64,000 nucleotides of DNA from a virus: positions 1-64,000 of the IMG/VR virus record IMGVR_UViG_3300027746_000697; one strand, 5' to 3'. The position numbers were made by a program, and so were the translations under genes. This document shows positions 63,034 to 63,246 of this stretch, piece after piece; within the stretch, counting starts at the first letter, position 1, and each line of letters opens with the position of its first letter. Under the pieces are notes generated by a model, which saw nothing but the letters and a program-made list of their open reading frames with translations, was not told the DNA's origin and did not search any database.

Positions 63034-63117
63034 TTTAAAAATTGTTGTAATCCCTTCAAAACGAAGGCATGTTGGACGAGGGTTCGATTCCCTCCATCTC
63101 CACCAAAAAGGTTTTTA

Positions 63118-63246
63118 ATGGATCAGTGGGACGAGTACTTTCCTCCTTTGAATTTATGGAACTATAGCCTACATTGGCAATGGTTCAATGATCCAATAGA
63201 AGAAGAAAATCTTTCTGATGGGGATGACCAGGTTTCGACAGCGTGA
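63118..63246 (+). CDS. 42-aa ORF in the tmRNA intervening segment
   Basis: ATG at 63118, 13 nt after the acceptor CCA, with AAGG 7 nt before it. Encodes MDQWDEYFPPLNLWNYSLHW and continues, acidic, to TGA at 63244-63246. FPPLNLWNY resembles short proteins seen in T4-like phages. Its last 9 codons are also the 5' domain of the tmRNA coding piece (from 63220). Removal of the intervening segment would separate the ORF from the mature tmRNA, so translation must precede or exclude processing. Confidence 0.6.
   Translation: MDQWDEYFPPLNLWNYSLHWQWFNDPIEEENLSDGDDQVSTA

What the first reader, a model, noticed from the sequence alone, without database searches (positions are those of the whole stretch)
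63106..63246. A protein-coding ORF inside a permuted tmRNA gene, sharing bases with the tmRNA coding piece
The stretch between the acceptor CCA (63105) and the coding-piece 5' end (63220) is not a plain spacer. It holds a 42-codon ORF with a ribosome binding site, and its last 9 codons also form the GGGGATG acceptor strand, D-loop and part of helix 2. One transcript would then be either an mRNA or a tmRNA precursor, and processing would remove most of the reading frame. This could link tmRNA maturation to phage translation.
Basis: partly seen in the sequence, partly recalled or inferred. Interest (0 to 1): 0.85.

Follow-up and report, generated by a model that had tools for sequence, protein, structure and literature searches.

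The report
Protein cassette inside split tmRNA gene
This phage hides a tiny, conserved protein gene in the throw-away middle of its two-piece tmRNA (ribosome-rescue RNA) gene, and many related phages use the same slot for other, exchangeable mini-proteins, so one transcript may yield either a peptide or a rescue RNA.

Summary
A permuted (two-piece, beta-type) tmRNA gene lies at 62980-63463. Its intervening segment (IVS, 63106-63219) carries a 34-codon reading frame that runs a further 8 codons into the tmRNA coding piece. The frame is a real gene. In IMG/VR phages found only through their tmRNA, the same peptide (M-x-x-W-...-FPPLNLWN-...) sits in the same place, and changes fall mostly at third codon positions (3-5 amino-acid changes against 8-10 expected, P about 1e-4). 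It is also not alone. Phage permuted-tmRNA IVSs are a recurrent slot for micro-ORFs: in 64 unique IVSs with a Shine-Dalgarno-like AAGG just after CCA, 50 have an ATG frame open to the tmRNA 5' end, against 3.6 in shuffles. The families are unrelated (FPPLNLWN, single-membrane-span peptides, WHWxYxWGI, CPxC..HKC). Two phages whose tmRNA flanks are about 95-98% identical carry different ORFs, so the IVS behaves as a cassette. The Shine-Dalgarno lies in a conserved stem that closes the IVS, which would make translation and tmRNA folding compete. The overlap with the tmRNA is real, but its protein tail is not conserved. Expression and regulation are untested. I found no report of this in the papers I could search.

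The parts
62688..62716 (+). Promoter-like site TTGCTA-17-TATAAT upstream of the csp-tmRNA unit
   Evidence: Consensus match only
62742..62945 (+). Cold-shock (Csp) protein gene directly upstream; also upstream of the tmRNA in L294 and L244
   Evidence: PHROG 729, E 7e-24; synteny with L294/L244
62968..63033 (+). 21-aa basic ORF MAQKKRTPMERAARRATKKKR between csp and the tmRNA; role unknown
   Evidence: ORF list
63043..63105 (+). tmRNA acceptor (3') piece ending with the encoded CCA
   Evidence: RF04321 match starts at 63043; sequence
63106..63219 (+). Intervening segment (IVS) holding the ORF cassette
   Evidence: ARAGORN/Rfam boundaries; comparison with relatives
63107..63116 (+). 5' strand of the IVS-closing stem; contains the Shine-Dalgarno
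   Evidence: Pairing register IVS i with -(i+4): 94% standard pairs in 44 ORF-IVSs, at most 66% in other registers; RNA fold of the window
63108..63111 (+). Shine-Dalgarno AAGG, 6 nt before ATG
   Evidence: Sequence; AAAGGA/TAAGGAG at the same place in relatives
63118..63219 (+). IVS-encoded part of the ORF, MDQWDEYFPPLNLWNYSLHWQWFNDPIEEENLSD (34 codons), the part under protein selection
   Evidence: Codon tests; alignment A1 with 13 invariant columns
63205..63214 (+). 3' strand of the IVS-closing stem, formed by the last ORF codons
63220..63246 (+). ORF tail (GDDQVSTA and stop) overlapping the tmRNA acceptor 5' strand and D-like region; tail not conserved
   Evidence: Variable stop at +24 to +93 and frame change in L034
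63220..63430 (+). tmRNA coding (5') piece (3' limit approximate)
63305..63391 (+). Tag reading frame, ANANTFEYFKVPASVAFSANDADFAMVA
   Evidence: ARAGORN coding part 293-379 of the gene
63436..63463 (+). Hairpin AAAAAAGGCACTTTCGAGTGCCTTTTTT, likely transcription terminator
   Evidence: Reported by the scan on the minus strand; the palindrome is also followed by a T run on +

Best explanation
The IVS of this phage's permuted tmRNA gene is a small expression slot carrying an exchangeable micro-gene. SHOWN by sequence: (1) the window ORF encodes a selected peptide of about 34 residues (FPPLNLWN family); (2) the same slot in other phages holds unrelated micro-ORFs with the same layout (CCA - Shine-Dalgarno - ATG - ORF - UGAU - tmRNA 5' end), or a non-coding hairpin; (3) near-identical tmRNAs carry different IVS ORFs, i.e. 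cassette exchange; (4) a 10-12 bp stem between the two IVS ends encloses the Shine-Dalgarno and often the AUG, its other strand being the last ORF codons. INFERRED: ribosomes load on the nascent transcript before the 3' stem strand and the acceptor strand are made, and produce the peptide. Once the stem and acceptor helix close, the start site is hidden, the tRNA-processing enzymes cut at CCA and at G1, and the IVS is discarded. So each transcript is an mRNA first or a tmRNA precursor, not both at once. In stop-less families such as this one, a cut at the tmRNA 5' end would leave a non-stop mini-mRNA ending in the last sense codon, itself a substrate for tmRNA rescue; uncut transcripts give a short irrelevant tail. 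What the peptide does is unknown; a short binding motif acting on a host or phage protein is most likely, because FPPLNLWN also occurs in unrelated phage proteins.
For: Permuted tmRNA. Same ORF in the IVS of L013, L014/L017, L018/L021, L019, L026/L027, L034/L038/L042/L043 and L039. Purifying selection on pairs found by tmRNA-only patterns; pN/pS 0.11-0.19 for the closer pairs. Recurrent slot: 50 of 64 unique AAGG-bearing IVSs have the ORF against 3.6 +/- 1.8 in shuffles (maximum 11 of 500); in IVSs not selected for the Shine-Dalgarno, 18 of 129 against 5.0 +/- 2.1. In that unselected set, ORF and SD are associated (P 3e-4). Cassette exchange: L244 and L294 have csp plus acceptor piece 97.5% and coding piece 95% identical, but unrelated IVSs (45%, membrane peptide versus CPxC..HKC). 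Stem: own ends pair at -8.7 kcal/mol on average against -5.3 for swapped ends; register statistics. Family C also occurs as a normal gene with its own stop directly upstream of a tmRNA whose IVS is a plain hairpin (L371, L378, L379), and L377 holds two ORFs in one IVS. All 32 membrane-peptide IVSs end with a stop 1 nt before the tmRNA, whereas families A and D never have a stop in the IVS.
Against: No expression, ribosome-profiling or RNA-end data. The IVS-closing stem also exists in non-ORF IVSs (80% paired), so it is primarily a processing element; its role in hiding the Shine-Dalgarno may be incidental. The window's own Shine-Dalgarno is weak (AAGG). Most phage IVSs lack an ORF (117 of 188 unique ones in a sample enriched for ORFs), and none of the cultured-phage IVSs I parsed shows one, so the cassette is not needed for tmRNA function. 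Many of the 64 IVSs are related, so the counts are not independent events. Outside the searched motif, selection is weak for the window against L026 and L034 (P 0.22 and 0.32, few differences).
Confidence: 0.6

Rival explanations
1. Real micro-gene, no coupling: the IVS is a tolerated insertion site in a crowded genome. The peptide is translated from the co-transcript like any operon gene, and tmRNA maturation neither controls it nor is controlled by it.
For: Cassettes differ in family and length (up to a two-gene IVS in L377); family C also lives as an ordinary gene next to the tmRNA; the stem is present without ORFs.
Against: The Shine-Dalgarno lies inside the closing stem in essentially all ORF-IVSs, and 5' processing cuts at the end of the frame, so some mechanical interference is hard to avoid.
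Confidence: 0.28
2. Non-stop decoy: the excised or processed IVS is a deliberate non-stop mini-mRNA. Ribosomes run to its end and need tmRNA, and the peptide is tagged by the same tmRNA for rapid turnover or to tune tmRNA use.
For: Families A, D and most of C end in a full sense codon exactly at the tmRNA 5' end and never have a stop in the IVS; the free-standing family C copies do have a stop.
Against: All 32 membrane-peptide cassettes have a stop 1 nt before the tmRNA, so non-stop is not general; a few IVS copies of C split the last codon; uncut transcripts offer stops within 24-93 nt.
Confidence: 0.08
3. The ORF is a by-product of RNA constraint: sequence conserved for tmRNA processing or structure happens to be open.
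For: The ends of the IVS are conserved as a stem, and the last codons and the overlap are constrained by RNA.
Against: Conservation in the loop is at amino-acid level with free third positions, indels are in multiples of three, and other phages fill the same loop with unrelated sequence or non-coding RNA.
Confidence: 0.04

Closest known systems
Permuted two-piece tmRNA genes (Rfam RF04321/RF01850; alpha-, beta-proteobacteria, cyanobacteria, some phages such as OM43 phage Melnitz, PMC9004378)
   Same: Gene order acceptor piece - CCA - IVS - coding piece, 7-bp acceptor helix, tag frame, IVS expected to be removed.
   Different: Known IVSs are treated as spacer. Bacterial ones parsed here are 30-78 nt and have no conserved cassette-like ORF (few parsed). 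Here the IVS is a conserved coding cassette.
Permuted tmRNA with a tRNA-Ala in its IVS (one nominally archaeal case, PMC11915505)
   Same: Another functional gene inside the IVS.
   Different: An RNA gene, a single case; here protein genes, several families, many phages.
tmRNA group I introns with homing endonuclease genes (PMC11915505)
   Same: Protein gene nested in a part of the tmRNA transcript that is removed.
   Different: The intron lies in the T-loop, splices itself and the protein spreads the intron; here there is no intron, the slot is the CCA/G1 junction and the peptides are 19-62 aa with no endonuclease signature.
Phage proteins with the FPPLNLWN motif (some fused to DUF3310, some next to a gene that I read as queE)
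   Same: W-x(2-5)-FPPLNLWN near the N-terminus of short phage proteins.
   Different: Those are free-standing genes with stops; function unknown.

Membership tests
Permuted (two-piece) tmRNA | Acceptor (3') piece encoded upstream of coding (5') piece, score above Rfam gathering | tested here: met
   RF04321 134.4 bits (cut-off 47), RF01850 120.2 bits (cut-off 84), ARAGORN tmRNA*
Permuted (two-piece) tmRNA | 7-bp acceptor helix between the two pieces | tested here: met
   GGGGATG/CATCTCC in the window; changed but still paired, GGGCCTG/CAGGTCC, in L026
Permuted (two-piece) tmRNA | Tag frame with Ala-rich end | tested here: met
   ANANTFEYFKVPASVAFSANDADFAMVA*; unusually long (28 aa)
Permuted (two-piece) tmRNA | Two separate mature RNA pieces, IVS removed | not testable with these tools
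   Needs RNA end mapping
FPPLNLWN phage peptide family | Motif plus flanking Trp pattern | tested here: met
   13 invariant columns in 7 IVS copies; no Pfam or PHROG match
Group I intron / homing endonuclease gene in tmRNA | Intron in the T-loop, endonuclease ORF | tested here: not met
   T-loop is intact, no intron family in the Rfam scan, no endonuclease match
Regulatory dual-fate transcript (mRNA or tmRNA) | Start site occluded by a structure of the precursor | tested here: met
   Shine-Dalgarno inside the IVS-closing stem, by pairing statistics and folding only
Regulatory dual-fate transcript (mRNA or tmRNA) | Translation changes maturation | not testable with these tools
   Needs experiment

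The most novel reading that the evidence does not exclude
Phages have turned the discarded segment of two-piece tmRNA into an exchangeable protein-gene cassette whose start site is locked by the precursor's own fold. Ribosome supply then decides, per transcript, between a micro-peptide and a ribosome-rescue RNA, and in stop-less families the leftover is a non-stop message for that same rescue RNA.
Probability: 0.3. Interest if true: 0.93.

Novelty: new variant of a known kind. Interest (0 to 1): 0.82.

Why it matters
Permuted tmRNA genes have raised the question of what the intervening segment is for. Here it is a coding slot in dozens of phage genomes, with swap boundaries at the tmRNA processing sites. 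It gives a source of unannotated phage micro-proteins (membrane peptides, a zinc-finger-like peptide, the FPPLNLWN peptide), suggests why gene callers and tmRNA finders miss them, and offers a natural test of whether translation competes with tmRNA maturation.

Tried and rejected
Protein search of annotated phages with the peptide found nothing useful. Pfam and PHROGs gave nothing for the IVS peptides. The DNA pattern for FPPLNLWNY found 0 places in 84,980 bacterial and archaeal genomes. The structure model of the peptide is too uncertain to use (mean pLDDT 66), so no fold search was run. Chance ORF: rejected by codon pattern and shuffles. Conserved overlap tail: rejected (variable stop, frame change in L034). 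Bacterial origin of the slot: 0 of 399 genomes of the Massilia order carry the Shine-Dalgarno-IVS layout and the few bacterial IVSs parsed show no such cassette (only 4 parsed). A scan for long IVSs in held loci added only L201, without an ORF reaching the end, and its T-loop rule missed L360 and L377. One automatic IVS boundary, for L039, was wrong (an internal CCACCA) and was corrected by hand. Classic tmRNA papers (PMC516066, PMC16621) are not held, so prior mention there could not be checked.

Full report
WHAT IS THERE. The window is the first 64 kb of a 116.6-kb viral contig with phage genes such as ribonucleotide reductase, a virion structural protein and an endolysin-like protein. At 62980-63463 it has a permuted tmRNA gene: ARAGORN tmRNA*, RF04321 134 bits and RF01850 120 bits. 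The acceptor piece ends with CCA at 63105, the coding piece begins GGGGATG at 63220, and the two strands form the 7-bp acceptor helix. A csp gene and a 21-aa ORF lie upstream and a terminator-like hairpin downstream.

IS THE ORF REAL. Eight IMG/VR loci were fetched with a pattern on the tmRNA alone. Three of them (L013, L014, L017) have the same peptide in the IVS; L018, also found by a tmRNA-only pattern, has it too. A scan for the codon motif added L019, L021, L026/L027, then L034/L038/L042/L043 and L039. Over the first 22-23 codons, window against L013 has 14 nucleotide differences, 10 at third positions, and 3 amino-acid changes against 8.1 expected (P 2e-4); window against L018, 5 against 10.1 (P 1e-4); L013 against L018, 4 against 10.1 (P 5e-5). 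Loci found by the peptide motif are biased there; outside the motif they are weakly informative (P 0.03-0.32). IVS lengths of 82-114 nt all keep the frame. Thirteen columns are invariant.

THE OVERLAP. The tail inside the tmRNA is not conserved as protein. The stop lies 24 (window), 51, 87 or 93 nt into the coding piece, and L034 changes frame at the tmRNA start. There the bases follow the tmRNA: acceptor strands change together (GGGGATG/CATCTCC to GGGCCTG/CAGGTCC in L026). So the sharing of bases is real but its protein side looks incidental.

A GENERAL SLOT. Scans for permuted tmRNAs and for those with AAGG just after CCA show that the IVS often holds a micro-ORF: 50 of 64 unique AAGG-bearing IVSs against 3.6 +/- 1.8 after dinucleotide shuffling, and 18 of 129 against 5.0 +/- 2.1 in the set not selected for AAGG. 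In that set ORF and SD are associated (Fisher P 3e-4). The loci are partly related, so these counts are not independent events, but the ORFs fall into unrelated families: A, FPPLNLWN; B, 19-32-residue single-span membrane peptides; C, MFENWHWxYxWGI; D, MKYTALCPxCF..GLTKHKC; and several single cases. Family B always ends with a stop 1 nt before the tmRNA (32 of 32 unique IVSs); A and D never have a stop in the IVS. pN/pS is 0.35 for C, 0.38 for D and 0.51 for B, so the evidence for selection is weaker there than for A, although single pairs in B and C are significant.

CASSETTE EXCHANGE. L244 and L294 share csp and acceptor piece (97.5%) and coding piece (95%), yet one IVS encodes a family B and the other a family D peptide; the IVSs align at 45%. 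L010/L011 have a tmRNA close to the window's but a non-coding IVS, similar (83%) to a tRNA-Lys/tRNA-Met spacer of the window's own phage. Family C also exists as an ordinary gene with its own stop directly upstream of a tmRNA whose IVS is a plain hairpin (L371, L378, L379), while L360 has a 57-codon and L377 a two-ORF IVS (L377's tmRNA is read by eye and is not called by ARAGORN).

THE STEM. The first 10-12 bases of the IVS pair with bases near its end, in one fixed register: 94% standard pairs in 44 ORF-IVSs against at most 66% in other registers. Own ends pair at -8.7 kcal/mol on average, swapped ends -5.3, shuffled -4.0. The stem is also present without ORFs (80%) and the bacterial IVSs parsed include short hairpins, so it probably predates the ORFs. 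In ORF-IVSs its 5' strand carries the Shine-Dalgarno, and its 3' strand is the end of the ORF. L018 and L039 keep the stem with different bases. The window precursor folds this way. This is the basis for proposing competition between translation and maturation; it is inference.

PHAGE-SPECIFIC? FPPLNLWNY codons: no match in 84,980 prokaryote genomes. The Shine-Dalgarno-IVS layout: 0 of 399 genomes of one bacterial order. The parsed IVSs of cultured phages (Menderavirus, Samunavirus, XacN1, QDWS359, BUCT628) have no such ORF. The window's contig has no SmpB match, so the phage tmRNA presumably uses host SmpB; the record may be incomplete.

LITERATURE. Phage two-piece tmRNAs are known (PMC9004378), and the current tmRNA database reports one IVS with a tRNA gene and endonuclease genes in group I introns, but in the passages I read no protein genes in IVSs (PMC11915505). 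Searches for related reports found none. The library is partial, so absence of a report is not proof of novelty.

VERDICT. The gene is real (about 0.93). That the IVS is an exchangeable cassette is well supported. That translation and tmRNA maturation compete is plausible and directly testable, not shown.

Noticed in passing
L169:1563-14402 (G000 65563-78402): A run of 31 tRNA genes follows the tmRNA in the same phage.
   Followed up: no
L169:3443-3547 and IVS of L010/L011: A roughly 100-nt non-coding element between tRNA-Lys and tRNA-Met is 83% identical to the IVS of a closely similar tmRNA in L010/L011; no Rfam family. Possibly a mobile structured RNA.
   Followed up: partly
L377:6934-7340: A tmRNA IVS with two ORFs (about 62 and 60 codons), each with TAAGGAAG upstream, the second ending at the tmRNA; ARAGORN misses this tmRNA.
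   Followed up: partly
L371, L378, L379, L360: Family C peptide as a free-standing gene with its own stop directly upstream of the tmRNA acceptor piece.
   Followed up: partly
L020, L022-L025, L028-L033, L036-L037, L045-L051: The FPPLNLWN motif sits near the N-terminus or elsewhere in unrelated short phage proteins, some with a DUF3310 domain; a candidate short binding motif of unknown partner.
   Followed up: partly
window 63305-63391; L244, L294: Unusually long tag peptides (about 28 aa) compared with the usual 10.
   Followed up: no
window 63535-63987: A phage gene for a protein with a signal-peptide and outer-membrane-barrel look, just after the tmRNA; no PHROG match.
   Followed up: no
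L015:320-478: Two tRNAs with amber anticodon (cta), called tRNA-Pyl by ARAGORN, near a permuted tmRNA in a 350-kb phage; possible suppressors.
   Followed up: no
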